Source of the DNA: Bradyrhizobium prioriisuperbiae
GTDB lineage: Bacteria > Pseudomonadota > Alphaproteobacteria > Rhizobiales > Xanthobacteraceae
Assembly (NCBI RefSeq): GCF_032397745.1
Contig: NZ_CP135921.1
Span: forward strand, 6,746,501 to 6,810,500
Reading direction: 5' to 3'
DNA length: 64,000 bases
Below, piece after piece: positions 34,281 to 47,592 of this stretch. The position numbers and the translations under genes were made by a program. Numbering within the stretch: the stretch's first letter is position 1; each line of letters starts with the position of its first letter. The notes beneath the pieces are model-generated. The model worked only from the letters and a program-made list of their open reading frames with translations. It had not been told where the DNA came from and searched no databases.

Positions 34281-35546
34281 TCACGGCGTCGAACCGAAAC
34301 AGGTCTTGTTACTCCTGAGATCGGACGATCGGCAGCTAAACGGCAGCCCGAGATCGATCCAGACATCGGCAAGCGCTGCACCGAGTTGGTCGATCATGGG
34401 ATCGTCATGACAGGGCGTCGGTGTGATACGAAGACGCTCTGTTCCCTCTGGCACCGTCGGATAATTGATGGGCTGGATGTAGATGCCGTGCCGGCTCAGC
34501 AGAAGGTCGCTCGCCATCTTGCTTTTTTCCGGATCCCCAATCAGCAGTGGTACGATATGGGTATCGCTCGGCATCACCGGCAGGCCGGCCGAACGAAGCA
34601 CCGCCTTGACGCGAGCGGCCCGGTTCTGTTGCTGATCTCGCTCCCATGACGAGGCCTTGAGATGACGAATCGCCGCCGTGGCGGCAGCGCATACCGGAGG
34701 CGGCAGCGCGCTGGTGAAGATGAAGCCTGGCGCATAGGAGCGGACCGCGTCGACCAGCGCGGTGCTGCCGGCGATGTATCCGCCGAGGCAGCCGAAGGCT
34801 TTCGCCAGCGTCCCTTCGATCACGTCGATGCGGTTCATCACGCCCTCGCGAGCGGCGATTCCGGCGCCGCGCGGGCCATACATGCCGACCGCATGAACTT
34901 CATCGAGATAGGTCATCGCGCCATAGCGTTCGGCGAGATCGCAGATCTGCCGTATCGGCGCCACGTCGCCATCCATCGAATAAAGGCTTTCGCACGCGAT
35001 CAGCTTCGGCCGACCAGCGGCGGTAGCTTGCAGCAACCCCTCCAGATGGGCGACATCGTTATGTCGCCAAATCTGCCTTTCAACCCCTGACTGCCTGACA
35101 CCCTCGATCATCGAATTGTGGTTCATCGCGTCCGACAGGATCAGGCAGTCGGGAAGCAGTTTCGCGATCGTGGCGATCCCGGTCTGGTTCGAAACATAGC
35201 CGGAAGTAAACACCAGCGCCGCTGGCTTGCCGTGCAGGTCGGCGAGTTCGGCTTCGAGGTCCACCACGAGATGATGGGTTCCGGAGATGTTGCGAGTTCC
35301 GCCGGCGCCGGTACCCATTCTGGTCGCGGCCTCTACCATCGCGCCGATGACCTTCGCATGCTGTCCCATGCCGAGATAGTCGTTGGAGCACCAGACCACC
35401 ACATCGCGTGGTCCTTGCGGCGCGTGCCAGATCGCGTGTGGGAAACGCCCAGCAATTCGTTCGATATCAGCGAAGACGCGGTAGCGACGCTCGGTCCGCA
35501 GCCGGGCGATCGCGCTCAGGAAAAATGCGTCATAGTTCGTGACCAT
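34281..35546 (-). CDS. hemA: 5-aminolevulinate synthase (C4 pathway)
   Basis: ALAS condenses succinyl-CoA and glycine to 5-aminolevulinate using PLP, the first step of haem synthesis in alphaproteobacteria. Conserved blocks are [79 protein letters not shown] and the PLP lysine in [16 protein letters not shown]. Start ATG 35546 (MVTNYDAFF) has CAGGTGAA before it; the frame opens further upstream without similarity. It lies 91 bp downstream of an SCO gene and beside the oxidase cluster, so I infer a dedicated or second ALAS supplying haem for that oxidase. A hemT-type name is possible. Confidence 0.92.
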
Positions 35547-35637
35547 TTCACCTGTGGACACGCCGCTCCATTGCGACAAGCACCATCGTTCACAAGGCGT
35601 GGGCGCAGATCGGGCTTGCAGCATCATGGATTGCTCC

Positions 35638-36216
35638 CTAGCGAAAGCGGGCCATCGTCTCGCGCAATTTGTCAGCGATCATCGATCCGGACGTGTCGGC
35701 ATCGAAGCCGCGGACGAATTGTCCATTCCGATCCATCAGATAGAGATACGTGCTGTGGTCCATCACGTAGTCGTTCGGGCCGGGACCAGTCCGATGCGGG
35801 GTGTAGTAGGCACCGTATTCCTTGGCCGCGCCCGCAATTTGCGACTCGCTGCCAGTCAACCCGATGATTCGCGGATCGAATGATCTGACATAGGCCGCCA
35901 TCACGTCGGGCGTGTCGCGATCCGGGTCGATGGAGATGAACAGCGGCTGCAGCTGGCTGGCATCGGAACCCAGCTGTTTAAGCGCGTCGGCTATTCCCAG
36001 CAGCGTGGTCGGACAGATATTGGGACACGATGTATAACCAAAGAACACCAGCAGCCATTTTCCGCGATAGGTCGCGTCAGATACCGTGGTGCCGTCGGAG
36101 GCAGTGAGAGTGAACGGACCGCCGATGGTTACCTTCGTGGCCGGTAGACGCTGCTGGGATAACGCCAGCAGCGCCACGACAACGATTGCCAGCATTTTCA
36201 AGGCGTCACGTTGCAA
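35638..36216 (-). CDS. SCO1/SenC copper chaperone for cytochrome oxidase assembly
   Basis: SCO proteins deliver copper to haem-copper oxidases. The 192-residue product has one N-terminal membrane anchor ([13 protein letters not shown]), then a thioredoxin-like domain with the copper site CPNIC in [12 protein letters not shown] and the distal His in [28 protein letters not shown] is the family signature. Start choice: TTG 36216 is favoured because AGGAGG (36230-36225) sits 8 nt before it, whereas ATG 36195 has no ribosome site. It is divergent from the cupredoxin-oxidase cluster and precedes the ALAS gene. Confidence 0.9.
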
Positions 36217-36586
36217 GGCGTCGCCCTCCTGTTCGCTGCCGCAAAGCAACTAACAACAAGATGACAGGTGGAAAACAATATCGCATCGCCTGGTCCGATG
36301 GGACCACGGCAAAGCGGTTGTCAAGCAAGCCACCTGTCAAGATTGGCTGATATCCGGGGTGTCCTCTCTCGGCGGTGGGTGCTTTATTATTCACCATTTC
36401 CGGAGGTGACACCCATCAGCTTTGCTTAACGCGACGAAAAGCAATCCTGATTTCTAACCGTTCTAAAATTGTGCTCCCGTGCCCACGCTCCAACGATGAG
36501 CGAGAACGTTCTCAATGTCTCCGGAGAGAGGCACTTCGCGCAGTTTCCGTTGCACGTGGGAACGTCAGAGAAGGGGAGGTGTCGCC
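36217..36586. promoter_or_regulatory. Divergent promoter region between SCO and the oxidase cluster
   Basis: This 370-bp gap holds no gene I can support. A perfect 12-bp palindrome GAGAACGTTCTC lies at 36502-36513, 74 bp before the cupredoxin start, and is the best operator candidate. Two TTCTAA direct repeats (36452-36457 and 36461-36466) and an inverted TTGCTT/AAGCAA pair (36422-36427, 36439-36444) are also present. On the minus strand TTGACA occurs twice at 36319-36343, possible -35 elements for SCO. No TTGAT-N4-ATCAA FNR/FixK box was found, which is unexpected for a cbb3-type locus. Confidence 0.4.
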
Positions 36587-37330
36587 GTGTCCATTCGCCG
36601 GGGCCGACTGCCGATTCACGCAACCGCCATCGCCAGCCTTTCGACAGTGATCATCGCCGCAGCGTTGGGGTCATCGGCGCAGGCCTATGACGAGGGGCCT
36701 GTCACCGGTGGTGGATCGATTACCGGCAAGGTGACGTTCAGCGGTCCCGCGCCAACACGCAAGGTCATTCCCACCAAGGATGTCGAGGTCTGCGGGGGCG
36801 TGCGCGAGGAGCCGCTGGTTCGCGTCGGTCCGGATCAGGGCGTCGAAAGCACGGTCGTCTATCTAGTGGACGTCGCCAAAGGCAAGGCTTGGCCGGCCGC
36901 CGGCAAGATGCCGGAACTCGACAACGTCAAATGCGCGTTTTCGCCAGAGGTTCAGGTAATTCGCGCCGGATCGCTGGATGTCGTCAACAACGATCCGGTG
37001 CTGCACAACACCCACGGCTACTACGACAAGCGCACCGCCTTCAACCTCGCGCTGCCGAATCAGGGTCAGCGCATTCCGGTCGAACTGAAGCGGCCCGGGA
37101 CGGTGCGGATCGATTGCGACGCGCATGGTTGGATGGAGGGGTGGGTTTACGTGCTGGACAACCCCTATTACGCCATCACCGGCGCCGACGGCAAATTCAC
37201 GATTTCCGACGTTCCGCCTGGCAACTACACCCTGGTTGCAGTGCAGTCCTTTACTGGTCCGCTGCAACAGCCGGTGGCTGTCGCCGCCGGCAAACCGACC
37301 AACCTGACAATCGAGCTGAAGAAGAAATAG
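36587..37330 (+). CDS. Exported blue-copper (cupredoxin) protein with carboxypeptidase-regulatory-like tail
   Basis: A 247-residue periplasmic protein. A signal peptide spans about residues 1-33 (ending SSAQA). The middle domain has type-1 copper ligands: His140 (or His143) in VLHNTHGYY, Cys177, His180 and Met183 in IDCDAHGWMEGW. The tail (about 190-247) is a carboxypeptidase-regulatory-like beta domain: ITGADGKFTISDVPPGNYTL. The start is GTG 36587, fixed by AAGGGGAGG at 36571-36579. As first gene of the oxidase cluster it could be a periplasmic electron donor or copper store for the oxidase; which of these is inference. Confidence 0.82.
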   Translation: MSIRRGRLPIHATAIASLSTVIIAAALGSSAQAYDEGPVTGGGSITGKVTFSGPAPTRKVIPTKDVEVCGGVREEPLVRVGPDQGVESTVVYLVDVAKGKAWPAAGKMPELDNVKCAFSPEVQVIRAGSLDVVNNDPVLHNTHGYYDKRTAFNLALPNQGQRIPVELKRPGTVRIDCDAHGWMEGWVYVLDNPYYAITGADGKFTISDVPPGNYTLVAVQSFTGPLQQPVAVAAGKPTNLTIELKKK

Positions 37331-37446
37331 ACCCGAACGACCGAAAGGCCCACTCAAATCGACGGCTCGGCGCAACGCGCTGAGCCGCAGTAAATGGAAA
37401 GACAACGCCGTGTGAACCATTGGCTTCATTGGGAGGAGGGAGTTCC

Positions 37447-38580
37447 ATGTCTGAACTCGAGAAATCTCGACGCGAGATTGCGACGGTGCTGCAACAGCCC
37501 GGATTGCGTCCCGATCCTTCAGTCAAGCTCACCCGGCGCACCTTCGTGCACCGGTCCTGCGTGCTCGGCGCGGCGACGGTCGCGGACACCTTTTCCTGGT
37601 GGCCGCTGATCAACACCATTGACGTCGCCCATGCCGCGGATGCGCCGTTCAAATTCGCCTGGATCTCTGACACCCATCTTTACCCTCGCTCGCTCAACAC
37701 CCGCTTCGTCGACAAGACGGTGCGGGCGGCGAAGGAAGTGCAGGCGATGAACCCGCCGGCCGACTTCCTGATCTTCGGCGGCGATCTTGCCCAGCTCGGC
37801 AAGGTCGAGGAGCTTGATCTTGGCGTCGAGCTGCTGAAGGAAATCAAGATCCGCAAGGTGTATATCCCCGGCGAGCACGACTGGTATCTCGACATGGGGA
37901 AGAAATGGGGTGAGCTGTTCGGCCAGCCCTATTGGACCTTCGACCACAAGGGGGTGCGTTTCGTCGGCCTCGACACGGTGAGCCGCGCCCCGGACTACTG
38001 GTCGATGAAGAAGATGAGCCCCGAGGAGCGCATGGCGCACATGTCGGTGCTCGATGGCACCGTCGCCGGTCCGTGGGCGGGCGTCGGCCGCGATCAGCTC
38101 GACTGGCTGCAGAAGACGCTCTCGACCTGGGACAAGGCCAAGCCGGTCATCATCTTCAGCCACAACCCGCTCTACGAATACTATCCGCCGTGGAATTTCT
38201 GGGTGCGCGACTGGCGCGACGTCAACGAAGTGCTCAAGCCCTACACCAAGGTGACCAACATCCACGGCCACGTCCATCAGGTGCTGTACAACGAGATCGG
38301 CACCATGCGTTCGATCGGAATGCTGGCGACCTCCTGGCCGTGGCCCTACGCGCCGGAGGGCGTGCCGAAACTGACCAAGCCGATGATCCGCGTCGACCCC
38401 GGCGATCCGTTCGATGGCGTCGGCTGGAGCGCGCTCGGGATCAATGCCAGGGATACTGTCGAGAACGAATACTACATGTGGGGCCGCAAGGAGGTGTTCG
38501 TGCAAACGGACTCCGATTCCTCGCTGAGCCAGCCGCAGATCCTGCGGCCGCGAGTCGCCGATAACCAGTGGCCGTATTGA
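37447..38580 (+). CDS. Tat-exported calcineurin-like metallophosphoesterase
   Basis: A 377-residue phosphoesterase. A twin-arginine signal is present (LTRRTFVHRSCVLGAATV, RR at 30-31), so it is exported folded, probably with metals bound. Metal-binding motifs in order are SDTHLYP (Asp75, His77), FGGDLAQLG, PGEHDWYLDM where GNHD is altered to GEHD (142-145), FSHNPL and HGHVHQVL. Loss of the motif Asn, normally a metal or phosphate ligand, may change activity. ATG 37447 follows GGAGGAGGG. The substrate is unknown; its place between a cupredoxin and a cytochrome gene suggests a role tied to the oxidase module. Confidence 0.85.
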   Translation: MSELEKSRREIATVLQQPGLRPDPSVKLTRRTFVHRSCVLGAATVADTFSWWPLINTIDVAHAADAPFKFAWISDTHLYPRSLNTRFVDKTVRAAKEVQAMNPPADFLIFGGDLAQLGKVEELDLGVELLKEIKIRKVYIPGEHDWYLDMGKKWGELFGQPYWTFDHKGVRFVGLDTVSRAPDYWSMKKMSPEERMAHMSVLDGTVAGPWAGVGRDQLDWLQKTLSTWDKAKPVIIFSHNPLYEYYPPWNFWVRDWRDVNEVLKPYTKVTNIHGHVHQVLYNEIGTMRSIGMLATSWPWPYAPEGVPKLTKPMIRVDPGDPFDGVGWSALGINARDTVENEYYMWGRKEVFVQTDSDSSLSQPQILRPRVADNQWPY

Positions 38581-38592
38581 GGGAGGATGGCC

Positions 38593-39054
38593 ATGAGCAA
38601 ACAAACGACACGTATCGATCTGTCCCGCGTCGTCGTGATCGGCGCGCTAACGCTGATCGCCTTCGTGGTCGGCCCGGCTGAGGCGCACAAGACGCCGGTC
38701 ACTGCGCAGCAACTGCAAGCCTATCAGGAAGCGTTCATGGACGAGGTCAAGAAGGGCGACCTGCTGTTCCACGGCGACGACGCCATCGCGAAGCAGATGG
38801 GCGTGGTGCTGTCGACGACCGGCATGGCCTGCGCGATGTGTCATCCGATGACTGCCGACACCCACCCGCATTCATATCCCAAGTACCAGGCGCAGATGGG
38901 TACCTTCGCAACGCTGCGCGACATGATCAATTGGTGCATCGAGAAACCGAACCAGGGCGAAAAGATCGATCCAGATTCGAAAGCCATGAAGGCGCTGGAA
39001 GCCTACATCTACTGGTCCAACACCGGCTCGGTGTTGGTGCCCGGAAAATATTGA
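38593..39054 (+). CDS. Periplasmic monohaem cytochrome c, SoxA/TsdA-like tail
   Basis: A 153-residue exported cytochrome. A signal sequence ends near residue 31 (FVVGPAEA-HK). One haem site is seen, CAMCH (80-84). The following text LRDMINWCIEKPNQGEKIDPDS and MKALEAYIYWSNTG resembles the C-terminal part of SoxA and thiosulfate dehydrogenase TsdA, including an extra Cys115. ATG 38593 is chosen over 38587 because the GGGAGG ribosome site at 38581-38586 directly abuts the first ATG. It sits 84 bp before ccoN; electron delivery to the oxidase is inferred. Confidence 0.85.
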   Translation: MSKQTTRIDLSRVVVIGALTLIAFVVGPAEAHKTPVTAQQLQAYQEAFMDEVKKGDLLFHGDDAIAKQMGVVLSTTGMACAMCHPMTADTHPHSYPKYQAQMGTFATLRDMINWCIEKPNQGEKIDPDSKAMKALEAYIYWSNTGSVLVPGKY

Positions 39055-39138
39055 GCTGCGTTCGTCGACCTTTTTAAGAAAACTGGCGCGGCCTCACGGT
39101 AAGCGGTGAGTTGGCGCGTAAATTGGGGGAGACAGGCC

Positions 39139-40638
39139 ATGGCAGAACCGTCGCATGGCGGGATAGCGAGTGGCGGCGCGGCTGGGGCCGGCGCGTTGCG
39201 CGGCAGATTCGCCGGCATCGATCTGGATGATCTGGTCGATTGGCGCGTGGTGCGCACCTGGCTTTATCTCGGCATGGTGTGGCTGATGCTGACCCCGTCG
39301 ATCGGGGTGATGATTTCGAGCATGTTCAACTATCCCGACTATCTCGGCACGGCGCATCTCGGGCTCACCTTCGGCCGATTGCGACCGGTCCATGTCAACG
39401 GTGTCATCTTTGGCGCGTTTTCCACACTGTTCATCGGCCTTTGCTATTATCTGCTGCCGCGGCTGTGCGGCGTGCGCGTGGTTTGGGGGCAGTGGGGCGT
39501 TCTGCTCGCCTGGGTCTGGAGCATCGCTCTGCTGGCCGGCCTCATTGGCCTCGTGATCGGCGACAACCATGGTCTGGAAGCCGGCGAACTGCCGCTGTTC
39601 GCCGAAATTCCGCTGTTCCTGGTCGTCGCCATCGCCACCGCACAGTTCCTCGTTACCATCGGCCAGCGACTCGAACCGGCGCTCTATGTCGCGCTCTGGT
39701 ATCTGATCGCCGCCTTTGTTTGGACGACGATGAACCTGGTGCTCGGCAGCTTCATCCTTCCCTACACGATTTCCGGCATCAACAGCGCAGCGTTTCATGG
39801 TCTCTACATCCACTACATCGTCGGCCTGTGGCTGACGCCGGCAGGCTACGTGCTGATCTATTATTTCCTGCCGGTTAGCGCCAAGAATCCACTGTTCGCG
39901 CACAAGCTGTCGCTGGTCGGCTTCTGGTCGCTGGCGCTGTTCTATCCGTTCGTCGGCATCCACCATTATCTGTACAGCCCGATCGCCGACTGGGCCGAGA
40001 CGCTGGCGATCATTACGTCGATGCTGCTGATCATCCCGGTCTGGACGGTGCTGGTGAACTTCTTCGGCACCATGACCGGCAAGTGGCATGAGTTCGGCAA
40101 GAATCTGCCGGCCAAGTTCCTGATCATGGGATCGCTGATGTATCTCATCGGTTGCTTCCAGGGCTCGACCGAAGCTCTGCGGGCGATCCAGCGGCCGACT
40201 CACTTCACCGATTTCGTCATCTCGCATTCGCATCTCACAGTGTTCGGCACCTTCGTGGTCTGGGCGATCGGTGGACTGGTCTATGTCTGGCCGCGCGCCT
40301 TCCAGCGCGAACTGTGGTCGTTCCGGCTCGGCAACTGGTCGTTCTGGCTGATCACCGTCGGAATCTCGGTGATGGGACTGGTGCTCACCGCCGGCGGCCT
40401 GCAACAAGGCTTCCAGTGGATGAGCGGCGTCGAGTGGCTGGATAGCCTGGTCTGGATGAAGCCATACTGGCTGCTACGCACCATTGCCGGCATCAGCATG
40501 GATATCGGCATGTCGCTACTGGTGGTCAATCTGATGCTGACGGCACTGACCAGTCCGGCGAGCGCGGCGCAGGCGCGCCCGCCGCGACCGGAGCCGAACA
40601 TCGGCCCGATCCCGGTTGCTGCGGAAAGGTCGGTGTGA
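39139..40638 (+). CDS. cbb3-like haem-copper oxidase subunit I (CcoN-like)
   Basis: The 499-residue catalytic subunit has about twelve membrane helices. Metal ligands can be placed: low-spin haem His85 (RPVHVNGVIFG) and His363, high-spin haem His365 (ISHSHLTVFG), and CuB ligands His225 (YIHYIVGLWLT) with His275/His276 (GIHHYLYSP). Tyr269, six residues before His275, matches the cross-linked Tyr of cbb3 oxidases, which argues for O2 reduction rather than NO reduction. Surrounding sequence is clearly divergent from standard CcoN/FixN, and an N-terminal Gly/Ala-rich stretch precedes helix I. ATG 39139 follows GGGGGAGACAGGCC. The TGA overlaps the next start (TGATG). Confidence 0.9.
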   Translation: MAEPSHGGIASGGAAGAGALRGRFAGIDLDDLVDWRVVRTWLYLGMVWLMLTPSIGVMISSMFNYPDYLGTAHLGLTFGRLRPVHVNGVIFGAFSTLFIGLCYYLLPRLCGVRVVWGQWGVLLAWVWSIALLAGLIGLVIGDNHGLEAGELPLFAEIPLFLVVAIATAQFLVTIGQRLEPALYVALWYLIAAFVWTTMNLVLGSFILPYTISGINSAAFHGLYIHYIVGLWLTPAGYVLIYYFLPVSAKNPLFAHKLSLVGFWSLALFYPFVGIHHYLYSPIADWAETLAIITSMLLIIPVWTVLVNFFGTMTGKWHEFGKNLPAKFLIMGSLMYLIGCFQGSTEALRAIQRPTHFTDFVISHSHLTVFGTFVVWAIGGLVYVWPRAFQRELWSFRLGNWSFWLITVGISVMGLVLTAGGLQQGFQWMSGVEWLDSLVWMKPYWLLRTIAGISMDIGMSLLVVNLMLTALTSPASAAQARPPRPEPNIGPIPVAAERSV

Positions 40639-42329
40639 TGAGCGCGCGGTTTGTCGCCCTTGTCGCCGGCGTTGGCTTCTTTTTCCTGGCGCTCATCACC
40701 CAAGGCATCTTGCCGTTCGTCGAGCCCTCGGCACGCACCGCCAAAGTCACCGCGGTCGTTCGCACCGATTATGGCCAGCTCAAATGGATGGTGACGGAAG
40801 CATCCGATTACACGCCGCTGCAGCAGCGGGGACGACGCATTTATCTGCGCGAAGGTTGCTGGTACTGCCATTCGCAATACGTCCGCCCCGTGACCGGCGA
40901 GACGCGACGCTGGGGGCCGGTGACCGAGGCCGGCGAATACGCCTACGACGTTCCGCACCTGTTTGGCACGCGTCGGATCGGGCCGGACCTGATGCGTGTC
41001 GGGCTGAAATACAGCGACGAGTGGCATTTCGCGCATTTCTGGGATCCGCGCCAATTGTCACCGGACTCGATCATGGCGCCGTATCGTGGCCTGTTCGATA
41101 CGCCGAGCCAGGCAATCAAGCTGGTCGCCGATGCCGCCGGCAATCGAACTCTCGAGAACAATCCAATCACCCAGCGTTTCTTCAACTTCGCCGGCAAGGA
41201 GCAGATCAAGCTGACACCCAATTCCGACGGTCTGCTGTTCGTTCCGCTGCAAGCCCGCGACAAGGCGCCGGTGATCCTCATTCCGAACAAGGAGTTCGGC
41301 GGCGACGGTGTCAAGTTGGCTGGGGAGACAGAGGATCTGCGGGCCCTGGTCGCCTATGTCCAGAAGCTCGGCATGAACCGCGGCAAATGGCGGGACCTGT
41401 TCGAGCCGCAGCAACTGGAGGTCATGGACGCGACGCAGCCGCGGTCGAGCGAGTGGATCGGTTACGGCAAGGAAGTCTATGAGCGACGATGTCTCGGTTG
41501 CCACGGCGAGAAAGGCGATGGCAACGGTCCGGCGGCCACTTTCCTCAACACCCAGAGACCGCGCAATTTCGCCGCCGGCGTGTTCAAGTTTCATCTGAAC
41601 AAGGAGCCGGTGCCGTCCGACGGCGATCTGTTGCGCACCATCACACGCGGCGTCCGCGGTACGGCGATGCCGGCCTGGTACGACCTGCCGTTGAATGACC
41701 GGCTTGCGGTCGTGCAATACATCAAATACGAACTTGCCGTCGATCGGTCCGATCCGAAGAAGCCGTATGCTTTCTTCACCGAGGAACCGCCGGGCGCGCC
41801 GCTCTATATCGGCCGTCCGCCGACGCCGACCCCGGACCTCATCACACAGGGCAAAACCGTGTGGCAGTCCGCCAAATGCTGGGAGTGCCACGGGAATACC
41901 GGCAAGGGTGATGGTGAAAAGGCGGCCGGCCTGAAAGACGATCTCGGCTTCCCGATCCGGCCCGCCGATCTCACCGCCGGACAGTTCAAGTCCGGAACCG
42001 CCGTCGAAGACACCTTCCGCACCATGACCACCGGGCTTTCCGGCACGCCGATGCCGTCGTATCGCGATGCGCTCCCGGAAACCGATCGCTGGGCGCTGTC
42101 CTACTATGTGCTGTCACTGTCGGCGTTCAAGGATCCGCTGACCGGCGAACTGTTGCCGGTCTCGGCCGCGGACCGCACCGCGCTCAATGATCCGAAGCTC
42201 GAAGCGGGAACACCGGACAAGGCCTATGTGCCGGGCGGTGGCACCGCGCAACGCGCCGACACAGGCAACAATGCCGCCTTGGCCGATGCCGCGGCAACGG
42301 CGCCGGTGAATCAGGAGGCACCGCGATGA
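40638..42329 (+). CDS. Tri-haem cytochrome c subunit: CcoO fused to a di-haem CcoP-like part
   Basis: The 563-residue protein has one N-terminal membrane anchor (about 5-25) and three periplasmic haem c sites. The CcoO-like part (1-250) has C74-WYCH with SQYVRP and the axial Met146 in DSIMAPYRGL. The second domain has CLGCH (285-289) and Met344 in GTAMPAW; the third has CWECH (414-418) and Met472 in GTPMPSY. Standard cbb3 oxidases place these haems on two polypeptides, CcoO and CcoP. No separate ccoP is present here, so this chain probably carries the whole electron-entry path. The Ala/Thr-rich tail (505-563) is probably disordered. ATG 40638 overlaps ccoN by one base; the stop overlaps the next gene. 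Confidence 0.9.
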   Translation: MSARFVALVAGVGFFFLALITQGILPFVEPSARTAKVTAVVRTDYGQLKWMVTEASDYTPLQQRGRRIYLREGCWYCHSQYVRPVTGETRRWGPVTEAGEYAYDVPHLFGTRRIGPDLMRVGLKYSDEWHFAHFWDPRQLSPDSIMAPYRGLFDTPSQAIKLVADAAGNRTLENNPITQRFFNFAGKEQIKLTPNSDGLLFVPLQARDKAPVILIPNKEFGGDGVKLAGETEDLRALVAYVQKLGMNRGKWRDLFEPQQLEVMDATQPRSSEWIGYGKEVYERRCLGCHGEKGDGNGPAATFLNTQRPRNFAAGVFKFHLNKEPVPSDGDLLRTITRGVRGTAMPAWYDLPLNDRLAVVQYIKYELAVDRSDPKKPYAFFTEEPPGAPLYIGRPPTPTPDLITQGKTVWQSAKCWECHGNTGKGDGEKAAGLKDDLGFPIRPADLTAGQFKSGTAVEDTFRTMTTGLSGTPMPSYRDALPETDRWALSYYVLSLSAFKDPLTGELLPVSAADRTALNDPKLEAGTPDKAYVPGGGTAQRADTGNNAALADAAATAPVNQEAPR

Positions 42330-42508
42330 CCATCTATTTCGAAATCGTCGGACCGTATCTCGCCGCCCTGATGATGAGCTTGGGGGCGTTGAGCATCTTC
42401 ATCTGGGGGATTTTCTCCGGCGCCTTTAAAGGAGCCGACGAAGCTGCGCTCGATTTTTTTCGAAGGGAGGTCGGCGATGTCGGATCTGCAAAACAGCCCC
42501 CCGAATAG
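42326..42508 (+). CDS. Small membrane protein, CcoS/CcoQ-like
   Basis: A 60-residue protein with one hydrophobic helix (GPYLAALMMSLGALSIFIWG) followed by SGAFKGADEAALDFFRREVGD. The helix-then-acidic-tail layout resembles CcoS, a small maturation factor for cbb3 oxidases, and loosely CcoQ. It overlaps the tri-haem gene by ATGA and the following gene by 32 bp, so it is translated with them. Small size limits the family call; membership of the oxidase operon is secure. Confidence 0.75.
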   Translation: MTIYFEIVGPYLAALMMSLGALSIFIWGIFSGAFKGADEAALDFFRREVGDVGSAKQPPE

Positions 42509-42698
42509 CCCGGTCCACCCGGATCTGGACGTGCGCGAAAGTTCGCACCCGGAGATGGAAGACTATGCCGGCGGCTATATCCAGGCCCGGGTCGGCTACA
42601 TTCCGCTCTGGCTGCTGGCGGTTTACGCCGTGCTGTTCGTCTGGGCGATGTACTACATGGTTCTGTACTGGGGCGGGGTCGGGCCCGGTCGGCCGTAG
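42477..42698 (+). CDS. Small single-helix protein of the oxidase operon
   Basis: A 73-residue protein with a Pro/Asp/Glu-rich head, the segment MEDYAGGYIQARVGYIPLWL and then one membrane helix ending YYMVLYWGGVGPGRP. I do not recognise a named family. The layout (cytosolic head, amphipathic segment, one helix, short tail) is like the N-terminal membrane part of CcoP without its haem domains. Since the di-haem part is fused to CcoO here, this could be the leftover CcoP membrane anchor. A ribosome site GGGAGG (42464-42469) precedes ATG 42477, inside the previous gene. Confidence 0.75.
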   Translation: MSDLQNSPPNSPVHPDLDVRESSHPEMEDYAGGYIQARVGYIPLWLLAVYAVLFVWAMYYMVLYWGGVGPGRP

Positions 42699-42769
42699 GG
42701 CGGACCGCGGTCTGCGACGGACGACACCAGGCAAGCCACAAGGCAGACGGTCGAGAAAGGAGATGCGGC

Positions 42770-42868
42770 ATGTTGGGAGCCAAGATTGTTCTCGGGGTTG
42801 CGGCTTTGAATCTGCTGTTCCTGTTCACAGAACTCACCATCAACGTGCTGCGGATGCATTTCGGTTGA
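42770..42868 (+). CDS. 32-residue membrane peptide of the oxidase operon
   Basis: A very short frame encodes MLGAKIVLGVAALNLLFLFT followed by ELTINVLRMHFG and TGA. It is one hydrophobic helix with a charged end. AAAGGAG at 42756-42762 lies 7 nt before the ATG, an almost ideal ribosome site, which is the main reason to accept so small a gene. Size and position recall the tiny single-helix subunits of respiratory oxidases (CcoQ/CcoM types). Function unknown. Confidence 0.65.
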   Translation: MLGAKIVLGVAALNLLFLFTELTINVLRMHFG

Positions 42869-42931
42869 TGAGGCGCCGCGGTTGCCTGACGCTATCCGGC
42901 GTCAAACGGCGCATGTTATCGAGGAGGTCGC

Positions 42932-43054
42932 ATGCTCGAACACACGGCGTTCTCGCTGGCCGAGGCGGGGCCGATCCAGATCATCGCATTTATCGGCTTC
43001 GCGATTGCAACGATCGCTTTCTTCGTTTGGGTCGTCTGGCTGGTGCGCGAGTGA
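42932..43054 (+). CDS. 40-residue membrane peptide of the oxidase operon
   Basis: The frame encodes a 40-residue peptide: MLEHTAFSLAEAGPIQ, then a single hydrophobic helix IIAFIGFAIATIAFFVWVVW ending LVRE. GAGGAGG at 42921-42927 sits 4-5 nt before the ATG, a strong ribosome site. It lies between the 32-residue peptide and the TauE-like gene, all on the same strand. Likely a small accessory subunit or assembly peptide of the oxidase; no named family recognised. Confidence 0.65.
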   Translation: MLEHTAFSLAEAGPIQIIAFIGFAIATIAFFVWVVWLVRE

Positions 43055-43088
43055 AAGACCCGCGCCGGCTGCGGCGGGTGATTGACCG

Positions 43089-43811
43089 ATGGCATATCTG
43101 GTGATCTTTGCGGCGGGGTTTGCCGGCAGCTTCCACTGCATCGGCATGTGCGGCGGTTTTGCCTGCGCGCTCGGCCGCGATCCGCAGGCGCGGATGTCGA
43201 CCACGCTGCGGCACCTGCTCTATAACACCGGGCGGCTGACCACCTATGGCTTTCTCGGCGCGCTCGCCGGTGCGGCGGGCCAGGTGATCTGTACGACGCA
43301 GGGCACGATCGTTTCAATTCTCGGTGAGCCGCTCGACCTTGGTCAGCGGCTGCTGGCGATCGTTGCCGGACTGCTGATGATCGCGATGGCGCTGCGTTTC
43401 TTCGGCTGGCTGCCCGGCCTGCATCGCGTCGGCACCGGCTTTGCCGGCGGGGCGCTTGCGGCATCGCTGCGCAGCCTGCAGGCCGCGCCCGGACCAGGGG
43501 CGCCCTTGGCGCTCGGCATTTTCAACGGTTTTCTGCCATGCCCGCTGGTCTATGCGTTCGCTGCGCAGGCGGCGAGCACCGCCGCACCGCTGCCCGGCTT
43601 TCTCACCATGGCCGCGTTCGGCCTCGGCACCTTTCCGGCGATGCTGATGATGGGCGGCGTCGGGCGCCTGTTGGCGCCGTCGCTGCGGCAGCGCGGCGTC
43701 GTGATCGCCGGCAGCGCCATTCTGCTGCTCGGCCTGATCACACTTGGCCGCGGCGTGCTGCCATTGGCCGCGCACATGGCCGAGAGCTGGCATGGCGGAC
43801 ATCCAGTATGA
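43089..43811 (+). CDS. TauE/SafE- or DsbD_2-like membrane protein with HCIGMCGG motif
   Basis: A 240-residue protein with about six hydrophobic helices. The N-terminal HCIGMCGGFACAL motif and the PCPLVYAFAA motif in helix 4 mark the sulfite-exporter-TauE/SafE-like (UreH_2/DsbD_2) group often found next to ccoI/fixI genes. The Cys residues within helices suggest copper or thiol handling during oxidase maturation; direct sulfite export is less likely in this context. Its TGA overlaps the CcoI-like start (ATGA at 43808-43811), which supports joint action in copper supply. Confidence 0.82.
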   Translation: MAYLVIFAAGFAGSFHCIGMCGGFACALGRDPQARMSTTLRHLLYNTGRLTTYGFLGALAGAAGQVICTTQGTIVSILGEPLDLGQRLLAIVAGLLMIAMALRFFGWLPGLHRVGTGFAGGALAASLRSLQAAPGPGAPLALGIFNGFLPCPLVYAFAAQAASTAAPLPGFLTMAAFGLGTFPAMLMMGGVGRLLAPSLRQRGVVIAGSAILLLGLITLGRGVLPLAAHMAESWHGGHPV

Positions 43812-45988
43812 CCGACGCAAACAGCACACTGTGCCTGCATTGTCTGCTCCCGGTCGGGCGGCGGGCGATGCGTCGCAGCGTGCAGGGCGAAGACTGCACG
43901 TTCTGCTGTTATGGCTGCTGCATCGCCTATCAGGTCAGGGGCGGCAGCCGCGAGGAACACGACGCTGCCTGGCTGCTGGTGCGGCTCGGCGCCGGTGGAT
44001 TCCTGTCGATGAACATCATGCTGTTCAGCCTGCTGCTGTATACCGACGACTTCGCCGGTGCGGACGCCGCGGTGCTACCATGGATTCATCTGCTGTTGTG
44101 GCTGTTCGCGACACCGGCCGTGGTCATTCTCGGCGAGCCGTTCGCGCGCGAGGCCTGGGAGCACGCACGGCAGGGCCGGTGGAGCGCGTCGACGCTGATC
44201 GTGCTGGGCGTCGGCGCTGCCTATGCCTATTCGGCGTTCGCCACGGTCGAGGGGAGCCGGCAGGTCTATTTCGACACCGCCTGCATGGTGCTGATGCTGT
44301 TCACGGTCGGCTATTATCTCGATGCCGCGGGCCGGGCGCGGGCCGCGCGCGACCTGGCGCCGCTGCTGGCGGCGGAAAGCGAAATGGCCATCGTGGTCGA
44401 GGGCGATGCCGAGCAACGCCGGTCGGTGCGCGAGGTTACGTCCGGCATGCTGCTGCGGGTGCGGCCCGGCGAGCGGATTCCCGTCGATGGCACCGTTGTC
44501 GAAGGCCGTTCGCACGCCGACGAAGCGGTGATCACCGGCGAATGCCGCGCGATCGAAAAAGGCCCCGATTCCTCTGTGATCGCCGGCAGCATCAATCTCG
44601 ATGGTCCGCTCCTGATCCGCAGCAGCGGCGCCGGCAACGCCACGCGTTGGGCTCAGATCTGCCGCTCGGTGCGCGAGGCGCTGCTGCGCCGCAGCCCGAG
44701 CCAGCGCCTGGCCGATCGCATTGTCGGCGTGTTCGTGCCGGTCGTACTGCTGCTGGGGCTTGTGACCGCGGCGGTCTGGTCGCGGCATGTGCCGTTCGAC
44801 AAAGCGCTGCTGACCGGCCTCGCGGTGCTGGTGGTGGCCTGTCCCTGCGCGGTTGGCCTCGCGGCGCCGATGGCGACGTCGCTCGGCATCGGCCGACTGG
44901 CGCGACACGGGTGCCTGGTGCGCGATCCAGCCGCGCTCGAGGCTTTGGCGCGCACGCGCCTGATTGCCTTTGACAAAACCGGGACGCTGACCTCAGGTCG
45001 GGCGCGGATTATCGCGATCGACAGCCCCAACGTCGATCCCGACGACGTGCTGGCGCGCGCCGCGGGGCTGGAGCGGCATTCCGAGCATGGCCTCGGTCGC
45101 GCGGTGGCGTTGACGGCGACCGCGCGCGGACTTGTTCCGATCGCAACCCAGGATGTCCGCGTCGTGCCCGGCCGCGGCATCACCGGCAACGCGGGCGGCG
45201 AGGCGGTTGCGGCCGGCAATGGCGAACTGATGCGTGGACTCGGCTGGGCATTGGCGCCGGATCTCGCAGCGCTGGCACAAGTGCACGAGACGCGGGGGCA
45301 TTCGCGGGTCTATGTCGGCTGGGGCGGGGTCGTGCATGCGGTGCTGGCGCTCGACGATACGCCGCTGCCGGACGCGCGCGCCACCGTCGACGCGCTGCAT
45401 CGGCGCGGCCTGCACGCGATGTTGTTGACTGGAGATTCGCCGGCCGCGGCGCGGCGGATCGCTTCGATCGTCGGCATCGCCGAGATCGAGGCTGGCCTCT
45501 CTCCCGAGGCGAAACGCGCGGCGCTCGATCGGCGTCGCCGGGAGGGCCTCGTTGCGATGGTCGGCGACGGCCTCAATGACGGACCGGTGCTGGCGACCGC
45601 CGATGTCGGCATCGCCGTTGGCTCGGCGACCGATCTCGCCCGCGAGACCGCCGCGCTGGTGTTGCCGCCGGACGGGCTGTGGCTGCTGCCCTATGCGGTC
45701 GATGTGGCCCGCTCCGTCCGCACCACCATTCTCAGCAATCTGGCGTGGGCGTTCGGCTACAATTTCGTGGCCATTGGTCTTGCGACAGCCGGCCTGCTGC
45801 AGCCGGTGCTGGCCGCCGCGGTAATGGCCGGATCGAGCTTGCTGGTGGTGCTGAATTCGTTACGGCTCGAGCGCTTGCCCGATCCGTCGGCCGACGTCGA
45901 AACCGCAATAGCCCCGGGCCCTGCCGCAGTACCGTCCCTTGATGCGAATACCGCAGCCCGCTGGATCAGCCAAACACGTCTTTCGTAA
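43808..45988 (+). CDS. Copper-translocating P1B-type ATPase, CcoI/FixI type
   Basis: The 726-residue pump supplies copper for CuB of cbb3-type oxidases. The N-terminus is Cys-rich (CLHC at 9-12 and CTFCCYGCC at 30-38) in place of a GMTCxxC heavy-metal domain, as in FixI-like proteins. Core motifs are the transport CPC (345-347) in VVACPCAVGLAAP, the phosphorylation motif DKTGTLTSG (Asp389), LTGDSPAAA and MVGDGLNDGPVLA. ATG 43808 overlaps the TauE-like gene. The last 23 bp overlap the convergent fccB-like gene. Gene order after the oxidase subunits mirrors ccoNO-P then ccoGHIS of other bacteria, without ccoG or ccoH. Confidence 0.9.
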   Translation: MTDANSTLCLHCLLPVGRRAMRRSVQGEDCTFCCYGCCIAYQVRGGSREEHDAAWLLVRLGAGGFLSMNIMLFSLLLYTDDFAGADAAVLPWIHLLLWLFATPAVVILGEPFAREAWEHARQGRWSASTLIVLGVGAAYAYSAFATVEGSRQVYFDTACMVLMLFTVGYYLDAAGRARAARDLAPLLAAESEMAIVVEGDAEQRRSVREVTSGMLLRVRPGERIPVDGTVVEGRSHADEAVITGECRAIEKGPDSSVIAGSINLDGPLLIRSSGAGNATRWAQICRSVREALLRRSPSQRLADRIVGVFVPVVLLLGLVTAAVWSRHVPFDKALLTGLAVLVVACPCAVGLAAPMATSLGIGRLARHGCLVRDPAALEALARTRLIAFDKTGTLTSGRARIIAIDSPNVDPDDVLARAAGLERHSEHGLGRAVALTATARGLVPIATQDVRVVPGRGITGNAGGEAVAAGNGELMRGLGWALAPDLAALAQVHETRGHSRVYVGWGGVVHAVLALDDTPLPDARATVDALHRRGLHAMLLTGDSPAAARRIASIVGIAEIEAGLSPEAKRAALDRRRREGLVAMVGDGLNDGPVLATADVGIAVGSATDLARETAALVLPPDGLWLLPYAVDVARSVRTTILSNLAWAFGYNFVAIGLATAGLLQPVLAAAVMAGSSLLVVLNSLRLERLPDPSADVETAIAPGPAAVPSLDANTAARWISQTRLS

Positions 45989-47243
45989 ACGTCTCGTACC
46001 AATCATCCGCCTCCCGCGCGAGGCTGCGACGCGTCTCGGCGGTATCCTCGAGGCGACTGATCTTGCTGCGGATAGTCTTGATCCGGCCCGCCACGGGTTC
46101 GAATTCGGAGGCGTTGCGCCATGCATCGTCGGCCGCCAAATGCGCATAACACGTATTGACGAGATGCGGCGTCGATAGCGTCTTGCCGGCCATCGCCGCG
46201 GCAATGGCGGCAGCGCAGGCCTTGGCCTGGCTGTTGGCAGCGAACGCCGTTTTGGGCATGTCGCCGCCGATGATGGCGTCGCCGATCAGATGAATGTCCG
46301 GCTGTATCAGCGACTCGAACGTCAGAGGGTCGACCGGACACCATGACGACGTATCGGCGAGGCCGGTCTGCCGCGCGAGATCGCCCGCGCTGTGCGCCGG
46401 GATGACATTGGCGACCGCGGCTTTGAAGCTATCGTTCTCGATGTGCAACGTGAGTGTACCGGCTTCGACCGCCTTGATGCCACCGGTGAACTGCGCCGGC
46501 AGCCACTCGATCATGTCCGGATAATAACGATTCCAGGCATCCTGGAATAAATTCTGTCCGACGAAGGTATCCTTCGCGTCGAGCACGATGATCTTCGACC
46601 GCGGCTTGTGCAGCTTGAAATACGCGGCGATCAGCGACACTCGCTCATACGGAGCAGGCGGGCAGGGGAACGGATCCGGCGGTGCGACCATGACGAACAG
46701 GCCACCATCCGCCATGCTCTCCAGTTGCCGGCGCAGCGTCAGCGTCTGTTCGCCGGCCTTCCAGGCATGCGGCATCACCTGCATCGCTGCCTTGTCATAG
46801 CCGTCAATCACACCATCGCGGATTGTCGACCCCGGCGCCAATACCAGACGATCATAGGACAGCGTCACACCGCCATCGAGCCTGACCGTTCGAGTGGCCG
46901 GATCGATCGTGGTCGCCGTGTCATGGATCATGGTGACGCCGGGTTGCCGCGCCAGCACATCGTAGGCGTGGGTGAGCTGCTCAAATGTCCGCAGGCCGGC
47001 AAGATAATGACTGCTGAGGAAGCAGGTCGTGTAGGCGCGCTTCGGCTCGATCACGGTGATGTCGAACAGAGCGCTGCCGGCGAGATATCCGGCCACGGAT
47101 GCGCCGCCGGCGCCACCGCCGACCACCAGCACCTTGGCGCGGCTCTGGTTTCGCGCCAGATTCGGCGCGAACAGCGTCACAGCCGCGGCTCCGGCCAGCA
47201 GGCCGGTTTGCCGCCGCGTCCAATCGGTGAACAAACGCGCCAT
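45966..47243 (-). CDS. Flavocytochrome c sulfide dehydrogenase flavoprotein (FccB/SoxF type)
   Basis: The 425-residue FAD protein oxidises sulfide to sulfur species in FCSD enzymes. A Tat signal is present (DWTRRQTGLLAGAAA). The FAD fold begins VLVVGGGAGGASVAGYL (38-). Cys74 in TTCFLSSHY corresponds to the covalent flavin Cys, and Cys194 (FPCPPAPYERVS) with Cys302 (WCPVDP) to the redox disulfide. No FccA cytochrome is adjacent, so electrons must go to another cytochrome; the monohaem protein of the oxidase cluster is a candidate. ATG 47243 lies 2 bp after the soxZ stop. Confidence 0.9.
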   Translation of the reverse strand: MARLFTDWTRRQTGLLAGAAAVTLFAPNLARNQSRAKVLVVGGGAGGASVAGYLAGSALFDITVIEPKRAYTTCFLSSHYLAGLRTFEQLTHAYDVLARQPGVTMIHDTATTIDPATRTVRLDGGVTLSYDRLVLAPGSTIRDGVIDGYDKAAMQVMPHAWKAGEQTLTLRRQLESMADGGLFVMVAPPDPFPCPPAPYERVSLIAAYFKLHKPRSKIIVLDAKDTFVGQNLFQDAWNRYYPDMIEWLPAQFTGGIKAVEAGTLTLHIENDSFKAAVANVIPAHSAGDLARQTGLADTSSWCPVDPLTFESLIQPDIHLIGDAIIGGDMPKTAFAANSQAKACAAAIAAAMAGKTLSTPHLVNTCYAHLAADDAWRNASEFEPVAGRIKTIRSKISRLEDTAETRRSLAREADDWYETFTKDVFG

Positions 47244-47245
47244 CG

Positions 47246-47572
47246 TCAGGCGACAAGCAGCGTATGGTTCAGCGCATAAACCGCGCCGCCGTCCTCGGTC
47301 CAGATGAAATCCAGCCGGCCGCTCGCTGTCGCGCGCAACGAGAATACGATGAACGGATTGGCAGCTACCGCCTCGTGGAGATCTGCCTGAAAAACCACTT
47401 CGTCGTTGTAGCGGCAGGTGAACCGGTTGATGATCTTGCGCGGAATCACCTCGCCATTGCTGTCGTGGCGCAGGCCGGTTTCCATGGGGTGATCGATCAG
47501 GGTCTTGATCTCGATCACCTCGCCGTGCGCCACGGTGCGCGGCACCTGGACCCGGGGGCTTGGTGTGGTCAT
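47246..47572 (-). CDS. soxZ: SoxZ thiosulfate-oxidation carrier subunit
   Basis: A 108-residue Ig-like protein matching SoxZ: VQVPRTVAHGEVIEIKTLID, the HPMETGLR segment, IPRKIINRFTCRYNDEVVF and FSLRATASGRLDFIWTEDGG. SoxZ pairs with SoxY to carry sulfur intermediates in the periplasm. It has no signal of its own and is exported bound to SoxY, as known for the complex. GAGGAGG lies before ATG 47572. Genes order soxY-soxZ-fccB with 2-20 bp gaps. Confidence 0.92.
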   Translation of the reverse strand: MTTPSPRVQVPRTVAHGEVIEIKTLIDHPMETGLRHDSNGEVIPRKIINRFTCRYNDEVVFQADLHEAVAANPFIVFSLRATASGRLDFIWTEDGGAVYALNHTLLVA

Positions 47573-47592
47573 AGCCGCCTCCTCATGCCGCT

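What the first reader, a model, noticed from the sequence alone, without database searches (positions are those of the whole stretch)
36587..45988. Divergent cbb3-like oxidase island with its own cupredoxin, phosphoesterase, cytochrome and copper pump
Eleven co-directional genes with overlaps or tiny gaps encode a cupredoxin, a Tat phosphoesterase, a monohaem cytochrome, a CcoN-like subunit, a tri-haem subunit, four tiny membrane proteins, a TauE-like protein and a CcoI ATPase. CcoN ligands and the cross-link Tyr are kept, so it should reduce O2, but the subunit set is not that of standard ccoNOQP. ccoG and ccoH are missing and no FNR/FixK box was seen. I know no described system with this composition.
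Basis: partly seen in the sequence, partly recalled or inferred. Interest (0 to 1): 0.75.

Follow-up and report, generated by a model that had tools for sequence, protein, structure and literature searches.

The report
Sulfur-linked divergent cbb3-type oxygen reductase cassette
This soil bacterium carries a set of about seventeen genes that joins an unusual oxygen-consuming respiratory enzyme to sulfur-carrier proteins, probably letting cells burn a reduced sulfur compound directly with oxygen; no description of it was found.

Summary
In detail: eleven co-directional genes (36515-45988) encode a cupredoxin, a metallophosphoesterase (MPE), a monohaem cytochrome (CYC1), a CcoN-like subunit, a tri-haem CcoO fusion, four tiny membrane proteins, a DsbD_2 protein and a CcoI ATPase. 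CcoN lies outside ordinary CcoN in two quick trees (SH-aLRT 99). It keeps the metal ligands and the cross-link Tyr wherever its 80 relatives cover them, and differs at five sites that barely vary in 48 ordinary CcoN. SoxY or SoxZ lies near this oxidase in 42 of 80 loci, in three arrangements, against 0 of 40 ordinary CcoN neighbourhoods. CYC1 carries the SoxA/TsdA cytochrome domain and the Cys aligned with TsdA Cys96. Best reading: a C-type O2 reductase dedicated to a Sox-like periplasmic sulfur oxidation. Against: beta/gamma relatives lack nearby SoxYZ, a variant with an AioA-like gene lacks MPE-CYC1, and methanotrophs carry MPE-CYC1 relatives without SoxYZ. Ten literature searches listed no description. 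Substrate, O2 affinity and complex composition are untested.

The parts
34281..35627 (-). 5-aminolevulinate synthase (ALAS, hemA-type), haem supply; cassette member in Rhizobiales
   Evidence: TIGR01821 663.8 bits over cut-off 338.55; in 23 of 33 Rhizobiales-clade loci; annotated hemA in the pSymA cassette
35638..36249 (-). SCO-family protein (copper/thiol chaperone)
   Evidence: in 30 of 33 Rhizobiales-clade loci; profile 37 of 80 family loci, 0 of 40 ordinary CcoN neighbourhoods; relative annotated 'SCO family protein' in pSymA
36515..37330 (+). CUP: cupredoxin plus carboxypeptidase-regulatory-like domain; putative periplasmic electron carrier (GTG start at 36587 also possible)
   Evidence: H164, C201, H204, M207 in 63 of 63 aligned rows; AlphaFold model pLDDT 88.8; best Foldseek matches a NirK cupredoxin domain, amicyanin, plastocyanin, purple cupredoxin; PF13620 over cut-off
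37420..38580 (+). MPE: calcineurin-like metallophosphoesterase with twin-arginine leader (by eye) and GEHD in place of GNHD
   Evidence: PF00149 46.4 bits; D84, H86, D122, E152-H153-D154, H248, H282, H284 in 55 of 55 rows; low-confidence model, pLDDT 60, nearest GpdQ/Rv0805
38587..39054 (+). CYC1: monohaem SoxA/TsdA-type cytochrome with conserved Cys117
   Evidence: PF21342 SoxA-TsdA_cyt-c 42.8 bits, cut-off 27; C82, C85, H86 and C117 in 57 of 57 rows; C117 aligns with residue 96 of thiosulfate dehydrogenase 4wq7/4v2k (residue counted by hand)
39106..40638 (+). CcoN-like catalytic subunit of a separate C-type clade
   Evidence: PF00115 236.7 bits; TIGR00780 224.5 bits, below cut-off 583; trees; residue counts
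40635..42329 (+). Tri-haem subunit: CcoO/FixO domain fused to a di-haem cytochrome c
   Evidence: PF02433, PF13442 and PF00034 over cut-off; CxxCH at residues 75, 286, 415
42326..42508 (+). TM60: tiny membrane protein, weakly FixS-like
   Evidence: PF03597 E=0.023, below cut-off; profile match in 75 of 80 family loci and 7 of 40 ordinary CcoN neighbourhoods
42477..42698 (+). TM73: tiny membrane protein, weakly like the N-terminal helix of FixP
   Evidence: PF14715 E=0.012, below cut-off; profile match in 76 of 80 family loci, 0 of 40 ordinary CcoN neighbourhoods
42770..42868 (+). 32-aa tiny hydrophobic ORF
   Evidence: frame read; conservation not tested
42932..43054 (+). TM40: tiny membrane protein
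   Evidence: BLAST match in 41 of 88 loci, among them all 33 Rhizobiales-clade loci
43089..43811 (+). DsbD_2-family membrane protein (TauE/SafE-like), probable oxidase assembly factor
   Evidence: PF13386 150.9 bits; 55 of 80 family loci, 10 of 40 ordinary CcoN neighbourhoods
43808..45988 (+). CcoI-like copper P1B-type ATPase
   Evidence: TIGR01511 455.5 bits over cut-off 397; 54 of 80 family loci, 36 of 40 ordinary CcoN neighbourhoods
45966..47243 (-). FccB-like FAD protein (sulfide dehydrogenase/SQR type; the FccB name is recalled)
   Evidence: best NCBIfam relative SQR_III_seleno, 78 bits, cut-off 525; 28 of 33 Rhizobiales-clade loci
47246..47572 (-). SoxZ
   Evidence: TIGR04490 92.7 bits over cut-off 76
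47593..48060 (-). SoxY-like carrier with shortened C-terminal arm (NGCN)
   Evidence: PF13501 89.6 bits over cut-off; TIGR04487 90.8 and TIGR04488 75.2 bits, both below cut-off; (N/D)GC near the C-terminus in 30 of 30 separate SoxY printed
48110..49891 (-). GroEL, cassette member in Rhizobiales (named from sequence and the pSymA annotation)
   Evidence: 27 of 33 Rhizobiales-clade loci; its relative is annotated groL in the pSymA cassette

Best explanation
The cassette encodes a C-type haem-copper O2 reductase dedicated to a Sox-like periplasmic oxidation. Proposed order: a reduced sulfur group (thiosulfate, sulfide or an organic thiol; not identified) is oxidatively bound to the C-terminal Cys of SoxY in SoxYZ by CYC1, a monohaem SoxA/TsdA-type cytochrome with a Cys near the haem. 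MPE hydrolyses the bound intermediate in place of SoxB, and the FccB-like flavoprotein feeds in sulfide. Electrons pass by CUP to the di-haem part of the tri-haem subunit, then to its CcoO haem and to the CcoN haem b/b3-CuB site, where O2 is reduced. CcoI, SCO, the DsbD_2 protein and ALAS supply copper and haem; GroEL assists folding. Shown: gene content, gene linkage, separate CcoN clade, conserved ligands, predicted cupredoxin fold, SoxYZ and SoxA/TsdA domain membership. Inferred: electron path, MPE as SoxB substitute, sulfur substrate, roles of the assembly genes. My confidence in O2 reduction alone is about 0.9; in sulfur coupling about 0.5.
For: Profiles of SoxY, SoxZ, MPE, CYC1, CUP, FccB and SCO match 0 of 40 ordinary CcoN neighbourhoods of 19 kb, but 41, 39, 55, 56, 62, 30 and 37 of 80 family loci. 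SoxYZ comes in three arrangements: FccB-SoxZ-SoxY in Rhizobiales; downstream in SAR324 (L047: SoxY, SoxZ, SCO, FccB; L051: FccB, SCO, SoxZ); and a SoxYZ fusion between CYC1 and CcoN in Rokubacteria, Tectomicrobia, Binatia and Methylomirabilota (in L072 two more genes lie between the fusion and CcoN). In the 24 loci of those last lineages, the 10 with MPE all have SoxY or SoxZ and the 14 without MPE have neither; 6 of the 14 hold less than 4 kb upstream of CcoN. MPE and CYC1 occur together in 54 of the 57 loci that have either, and the 3 exceptions are at contig ends. CYC1 is over the PF21342 cut-off, Cys117 in 57 of 57, aligned with TsdA residue 96. The SoxY Cys is kept in 30 of 30 separate SoxY printed and in the 9 fusions printed. 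25 of 50 family genomes have no SoxB over cut-off, among them isolates of Mesorhizobium, Rhizobium, S. fredii, Microvirga and Pseudothauera, so the cassette does not merely accompany the standard Sox pathway. CcoN active-site residues complete.
Against: 13 of 54 loci with both MPE and CYC1 have no SoxYZ in the stretch held (one, L024, is a short contig), and none of the 12 beta/gamma/Gemmatimonadota loci has it; 8 of those 12 genomes have SoxB over cut-off elsewhere. Three loci (L042, L054, L061) pair the same oxidase and CUP with an AioA-like gene (TIGR02693 over cut-off in L042, the only one tested) and lack MPE and CYC1, so the oxidase is not tied to sulfur. A methanotroph MPE-CYC1 relative (38-42% identity) lies beside a di-haem peroxidase and pmoCAB without SoxYZ; a Methylocystis plasmid has peroxidase-MPE, and on another the MPE relative has neither partner annotated. 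CYC1 fails the SoxA equivalog (32.9 vs 110 bits) and MPE has no SoxB match; the FccB-like protein is below every NCBIfam cut-off. The same genome has canonical SoxB and three other SoxY. Several of the 25 genomes without SoxB are MAGs, where absence may be incompleteness, and both SAR324 genomes searched have SoxB-like matches of 405-413 bits, below the cut-off of 550. Many loci are close relatives, so counts are not independent.
Confidence: 0.5

Rival explanations
1. General-purpose divergent cbb3 oxidase fed by the ordinary cytochrome c pool; the sulfur genes are neighbours that share mobility or regulation, not electrons.
For: Beta/gamma loci keep oxidase, CUP, MPE and CYC1 without SoxYZ nearby; CcoI and DsbD_2 relatives also lie beside ordinary CcoN (36 and 10 of 40); the CcoN is plasmid-borne in Sinorhizobium and Rhizobium.
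Against: Three different SoxYZ placements and the MPE-SoxYZ coupling in Rokubacteria and kin; the SoxA/TsdA-type cytochrome accompanies MPE in 54 of 57 loci, the rest cut by contig ends; 0 of 40 control neighbourhoods.
Confidence: 0.25
2. Exchangeable terminal module for several inorganic donors: CUP plus oxidase is the constant acceptor and the donor enzyme varies (AioA-like in one branch, SoxYZ-MPE-CYC1 in another). MPE-CYC1 may then act on something other than sulfur, or as maturation factors.
For: An AioA-like gene and a cytochrome or CUP precede CcoN in L042, L054 and L061 (L042 tested by Pfam and NCBIfam). The five-locus group that holds these three, plus L053 and L063 where no AioA-like gene was seen, has CUP in 5 of 5 and MPE and CYC1 in 0 of 5. 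In L042 a Cox11-domain protein stands where MPE-CYC1 would be. A methanotroph has MPE-CYC1 without SoxYZ.
Against: CYC1 keeps the Cys in all 57 rows; SoxYZ accompanies MPE in 10 of 10 loci of the distant clade. Partly compatible with the best explanation for the window itself.
Confidence: 0.18
3. NO reductase or other non-O2 reductase derived from the C family.
For: Five substitutions at sites that hardly vary in the 48 ordinary CcoN compared: Q to H231, Y to H266, H or S to G272, T to C350 (78 of 80) and E to Q352.
Against: Cross-link Tyr280 and all three CuB His kept in 80 of 80, whereas the 4 NOR rows have S or T at the Tyr position; dedicated copper ATPase; both trees separate NOR with full support.
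Confidence: 0.04

Closest known systems
cbb3-type (C-family) cytochrome c oxidase, CcoNOQP with CcoGHIS
   Same: CcoN family, His ligands, cross-link Tyr, CcoO domain, CcoI-type ATPase, DsbD_2 protein
   Different: about 30% CcoN identity; separate clade; CcoO fused to a di-haem cytochrome; no separate CcoP; no CcoG in the whole genome; own cupredoxin; SoxYZ, MPE and CYC1 partners
Sox thiosulfate oxidation system (SoxXAYZBCD)
   Same: SoxY and SoxZ carriers with a Cys near the C-terminus, a SoxA-domain cytochrome, an exported metallohydrolase, an FccB/SoxF-like flavoprotein (last name recalled)
   Different: no SoxB and no SoxA equivalog in the cassette; SoxY arm shortened; dedicated oxidase in the same cassette; SoxX and SoxCD were not searched for
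Thiosulfate dehydrogenase TsdA
   Same: cytochrome domain PF21342 and the Cys aligned with residue 96
   Different: one CxxCH; 155 aa against about 252 aa of the solved TsdA chains; that TsdA has two haems is recalled
Arsenite oxidase AioA gene clusters
   Same: a branch of this oxidase family is preceded by an AioA-like gene
   Different: not present in the window's cassette
GpdQ/Rv0805-type metallophosphoesterases
   Same: predicted core fold (weak model) and metal-site motifs
   Different: invariant GEHD instead of GNHD; twin-arginine leader (by eye); paired with CYC1

Membership tests
C-family haem-copper O2 reductase (broad) | haem His ligands, three CuB His, cross-link Tyr on helix VII (positions recalled, aligned to 3mk7) | tested here: met
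   80 of 80, H96 78 of 80 with two gaps
Ordinary CcoN/FixN (TIGR00780) | score over equivalog cut-off 583 bits | tested here: not met
   224.5 bits
Ordinary CcoN/FixN (TIGR00780) | falls inside the ordinary CcoN clade | tested here: not met
   two quick trees
cbb3 oxidase operon | CcoO subunit | tested here: met
   PF02433 157.3 bits, as a fusion; TIGR00781 138 bits, below cut-off 200.65
cbb3 oxidase operon | separate CcoP | tested here: not met
   TIGR00782 53.9 vs 179.95 bits, inside the fusion; TM73 resembles FixP_N only weakly
cbb3 oxidase operon | CcoG | tested here: not met
   no match in the genome
cbb3 oxidase operon | CcoH | not tested
   no ccoH-like match among the cassette proteins scanned; the genome was not searched
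cbb3 oxidase operon | nanomolar O2 affinity, proton pumping | not testable with these tools
   none
Sox system | SoxY and SoxZ | tested here: met
   SoxZ over cut-off; SoxY by Pfam; SoxY equivalog not met, 75.2 vs 125 bits
Sox system | SoxB in the cassette | tested here: not met
   TIGR04486 is not among the matches of MPE; the genome's only match lies about 2 Mb away
Sox system | SoxA equivalog in the cassette | tested here: not met
   TIGR04484 32.9 vs 110 bits
Sox system | SoxX and SoxCD | not tested
   not searched
Sox system | oxidises thiosulfate on the SoxY Cys | not testable with these tools
   none
TsdA | SoxA/TsdA cytochrome domain with active-site Cys | tested here: met
TsdA | two c-type haems | tested here: not met
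   one CxxCH, at residue 82
Nitric oxide reductase (NorB) | groups with NOR, lacks the helix VII Tyr | tested here: not met
Cupredoxin | cupredoxin fold with His-Cys-His-Met | tested here: met
   (predicted fold; copper not shown)

The most novel reading that the evidence does not exclude
A self-contained, mobile respiratory module that oxidises a reduced sulfur compound on a shortened SoxY arm without SoxB and SoxAX, using a monohaem Cys-ligated cytochrome and a GEHD metallohydrolase instead, and hands the electrons through its own cupredoxin to its own C-type O2 reductase.
Probability: 0.33. Interest if true: 0.82.

Novelty: new variant of a known kind. Interest (0 to 1): 0.68.

Why it matters
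If true, it would be a sulfur oxidation route hard-wired to a terminal oxidase, found from Rhizobiales to Rokubacteria and carried on symbiotic megaplasmids, where low O2 and reduced sulfur may meet. It would show that the C family, called 'more compact than other families' in one survey of alphaproteobacterial oxidases (PMC6431628, passages seen), contains a separate partner-specific branch, and that SoxYZ can work without SoxB and SoxAX. In the listings seen, relatives are annotated as 'cbb3-type' or 'cytochrome oxidase' or left unnamed, which could mislead predictions of microaerobic metabolism. A laboratory-tractable test host exists: S. meliloti strains with the pSymA cassette.

Tried and rejected
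Ordinary CcoN: rejected by score and trees. NO reductase: rejected by residues and trees. MPE as a SoxB: no sequence support, and the nearest predicted fold is GpdQ/Rv0805, though the model is weak (pLDDT 60.4). The Thioalkalivibrio paper PMC6620896 looked promising for an MPE-sox link; passages show an MPE label in a figure of arsenic-resistance genes and soxYZXXAB elsewhere, not this cassette. PMC12997753 (passages) describes a SoxYZ-like carrier beside PQQ alcohol dehydrogenases, a different association. Galardini 2011, PMC3164228 (passages) lists an accessory hemA absent from Rm1021 but no oxidase-sox cassette in the passages seen; that this hemA is the cassette's ALAS is my inference, BL225C having the cassette. 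That paper and the AK21 paper (PMC4468178, passages) speak of fixNOQP. The FixK box search gave nothing upstream. Five Acidobacterial relatives with intermediate scores (34-40% identity) have no CUP, MPE, CYC1 or SoxYZ match nearby.

Rows dropped: the first tree left out L059, L086 and L089 (short) and thinned 77 family rows to 59 before adding the window; L130 and L131 were fetched but gave no usable row. One long-branch row (L007) was dropped for the second tree. The gene clustering merged unrelated families and shadow frames, so counts were taken. The 1409 hits came from a capped candidate list with 120 shown and are not a count of this family.

Full report
What is there. The eleven genes are confirmed. 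Cupredoxin protein CUP 36515-37330; metallophosphoesterase MPE 37420-38580; monohaem cytochrome CYC1 38587-39054; CcoN-like 39106-40638; tri-haem CcoO fusion 40635-42329; tiny membrane proteins 42326-42508, 42477-42698, 42770-42868 and 42932-43054; DsbD_2 43089-43811; CcoI-type ATPase 43808-45988. Four junctions overlap. The genome (9.08 Mb, one contig) has four COX1 genes; only this one is matched by the ccoN model TIGR00780, so it is probably the only C-type oxidase. CcoG has no match in the genome.

The cassette is larger than described. Downstream on the minus strand lie an FccB-like flavoprotein, SoxZ, SoxY and GroEL (45966-49891); upstream SCO and 5-aminolevulinate synthase (34281-36249). 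In the 33 loci of the Rhizobiales CcoN clade (one is a MAG labelled Gammaproteobacteria) the counts are ALAS 23, SCO 30, FccB 28, SoxZ 30, SoxY 30, GroEL 27 (several loci are cut by contig ends). On S. meliloti pSymA CP140920.1 the same set is annotated in a rearranged order, with soxY, soxZ, a c-type cytochrome, metallophosphoesterase, SCO, hemA, groL and TauE/SafE; all 16 cassette proteins searched by BLAST are matched there and on BL225C pSINMEB01 (the 32-aa ORF was not searched). 38 plasmid records hold the CcoN, 33 of them Sinorhizobium; 32 are predicted conjugative.

Distribution. One scan of GTDB species contigs gave 100 relatives, of which the best 80 loci were kept: Rhizobiales, beta- and gammaproteobacteria, SAR324, Gemmatimonadota, Tectomicrobia, Binatota, Methylomirabilota, Rokubacteria and others, and one Acidobacterium. 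The family is rare in an even sample. Of 60 Pseudomonadota genomes, the window's included, only the window's own CcoN is known to belong; six other matches of 238-249 bits are below the model's cut-off, and the five of them put in the tree form a different group. MPE at E<=1e-30 was in 3 of 249 genomes, the window's included, and one of the three is a distant relative.

CcoN is a separate C-type branch. First tree: 60 family rows on one side of a branch with SH-aLRT 99, 42 ordinary CcoN on another with 100. Second tree, with 12 Acidobacterial rows and without one long-branch row: the family plus one identical duplicate row 99; the 42 ordinary rows with six Acidobacterial rows 100; five further Acidobacterial rows outside both. 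These are quick trees, the program warned of long branches meeting, and no bootstrap was run. Differences, 80 family rows against 48 ordinary CcoN: H231 80 of 80 against Q 48 of 48; H266 80 against Y 48; G272 80 against H 44 and S 4; Q352 80 against E 48; C350 78 against T 48. By my hand count on the alignment, Y280 corresponds to Tyr251 and Q352 to Glu323 of P. stutzeri 3mk7; that Tyr251 is the cross-linked Tyr is recalled.

Partners. CUP keeps His164, Cys201, His204 and Met207 in 63 of 63 rows, MPE its metal-site motifs with GEHD in 55 of 55, CYC1 its CxxCH and Cys117 in 57 of 57 (rows were admitted at bit scores of at least 60, 150 and 80 and 50% coverage, the window included). The CUP model (pLDDT 88.8) matches cupredoxins: a NirK domain first, then amicyanin, plastocyanin and purple cupredoxin. 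CYC1 is over the Pfam SoxA-TsdA cut-off (42.8 vs 27 bits); its Cys117 aligns with residue 96 of TsdA structures (E 0.012) and with a Cys of SoxA 1h31 (E 8e-5). That Cys96 is the TsdA haem ligand is recalled. Many of the 120 relatives listed are named 'thiosulfate dehydrogenase' by JGI. GEHD is kept even in a methanotroph relative of 38% identity, where GpdQ has GNHD.

Control. Profiles built from the family were run on 40 ordinary CcoN neighbourhoods of 19 kb, all from Pseudomonadota, and on the 80 family loci (4-21 kb). CUP 0 of 40 vs 62 of 80; MPE 0 vs 55; CYC1 0 vs 56; SoxY 0 vs 41; SoxZ 0 vs 39; FccB 0 vs 30; SCO 0 vs 37; TM73 0 vs 76; TM60 7 vs 75; DsbD_2 10 vs 55; CcoI 36 vs 54. Profiles were made from the family, so divergent homologues in controls can be missed, and the family loci are not independent.

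Three SoxYZ arrangements. Rhizobiales: FccB-SoxZ-SoxY, mostly convergent with the oxidase. SAR324 L047: SoxY, SoxZ, SCO, FccB downstream of CcoI; L051: FccB, SCO, SoxZ. Rokubacteria, Methylomirabilota, Tectomicrobia and Binatia: one SoxYZ fusion between CYC1 and CcoN, over the Pfam cut-offs for both domains in the two fusions tested. In the last group of 24 loci, the 10 with MPE all have SoxY or SoxZ matches and the 14 without MPE have none; 6 of these 14 hold less than 4 kb upstream of CcoN. The SoxY Cys is kept near the C-terminus as (N/D)GC in 30 of 30 separate SoxY printed, an arm unlike the GGCGG of the NCBIfam name.

SoxB. Of 50 family genomes searched (of 80 loci), 25 have SoxB over cut-off and 25 do not. 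The second group includes isolates of Mesorhizobium temperatum, Rhizobium sp., S. fredii USDA 205, Microvirga lupini and Pseudothauera rhizosphaerae, but also MAGs, and two SAR324 genomes with matches of 405-413 bits. The window's own genome has SoxB and three further SoxY elsewhere.

Results against a sulfur role. None of the 12 beta/gamma/Gemmatimonadota loci has SoxYZ in the stretch held. L042, L054 and L061 carry an AioA-like gene (L042 tested: 476.6 bits, cut-off 359) with CUP and the oxidase but no MPE or CYC1; in L042 a di-haem cytochrome, a Cox11-domain protein and a DUF4382 protein were identified between AioA and CcoN. In a Methylocystis-like genome (L151) an MPE-CYC1 pair lies beside a di-haem peroxidase and pmoCAB (both recognised by eye); a Methylocystis plasmid has peroxidase, MPE and a hypothetical protein; on another only the MPE relative is annotated. 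So MPE-CYC1 is a portable pair whose chemistry may be wider than sulfur, and the oxidase may accept other donors.

Literature. Ten searches of open-access full text listed no paper on this gene set that I could recognise; I saw passages of five papers, listings of the others and no whole text. Subscription papers are not covered.

Verdict. A real, conserved, partly plasmid-borne cassette; a distinct branch of the C-type oxidases; most likely the O2-reducing end of a Sox-like periplasmic oxidation in the window. The substrate and electron path are inference.

Noticed in passing
L151 (G292) 1358-9661; L157 8607-11681: In Methylocystis-like methanotrophs an MPE relative with GEHD follows a di-haem peroxidase gene; in L151 a CYC1 relative keeping the Cys follows it and pmoCAB (recognised by eye) lies alongside.
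   Followed up: partly
L066, L072, L074-L078 (residues 253-279 of the anti-sigma proteins): Upstream of the operon in distant branches lie an ECF sigma factor (12 loci) and an anti-sigma-like protein (10 loci), both named by eye; 7 of the 10 anti-sigma proteins carry a CxxCH haem-binding motif near the C-terminus, suggesting a haem-bearing sensor.
   Followed up: partly
L042 4099-6732, L054 4150-6876, L061 4157-6781: AioA-like molybdoenzyme genes lead a variant of the oxidase operon (L042 tested over the arsenite oxidase cut-off).
   Followed up: partly
L154 10093-12621 (G000:C1 about 8.787 Mb): A second FccB-like, SoxY, SoxZ group in the same genome, about 20 kb from the SoxB locus.
   Followed up: no
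L155 5344-9577 (G000:C1 about 7.57 Mb): A SoxY-domain protein of about 300 aa near what looks by eye like a PQQ alcohol dehydrogenase, as in the quinoprotein-associated SoxYZ carriers.
   Followed up: no
window 33154-34131: LysR-type regulator (OxyR-like by eye) next to ALAS; a LysR gene stands at the same place in L013, and that LysR family was found in 10 loci.
   Followed up: no
L124-L128; G098:C18:16774-17127 and similar: Another divergent CcoN clade (238-249 bits) in one family of Pseudomonadota, with separate open frames of about 170-200 aa matching only the C-terminal third of CcoN.
   Followed up: no
window 24152-29667: Outer-membrane factor, periplasmic adaptor and RND pump genes that look by eye like a heavy-metal efflux set.
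   Followed up: no
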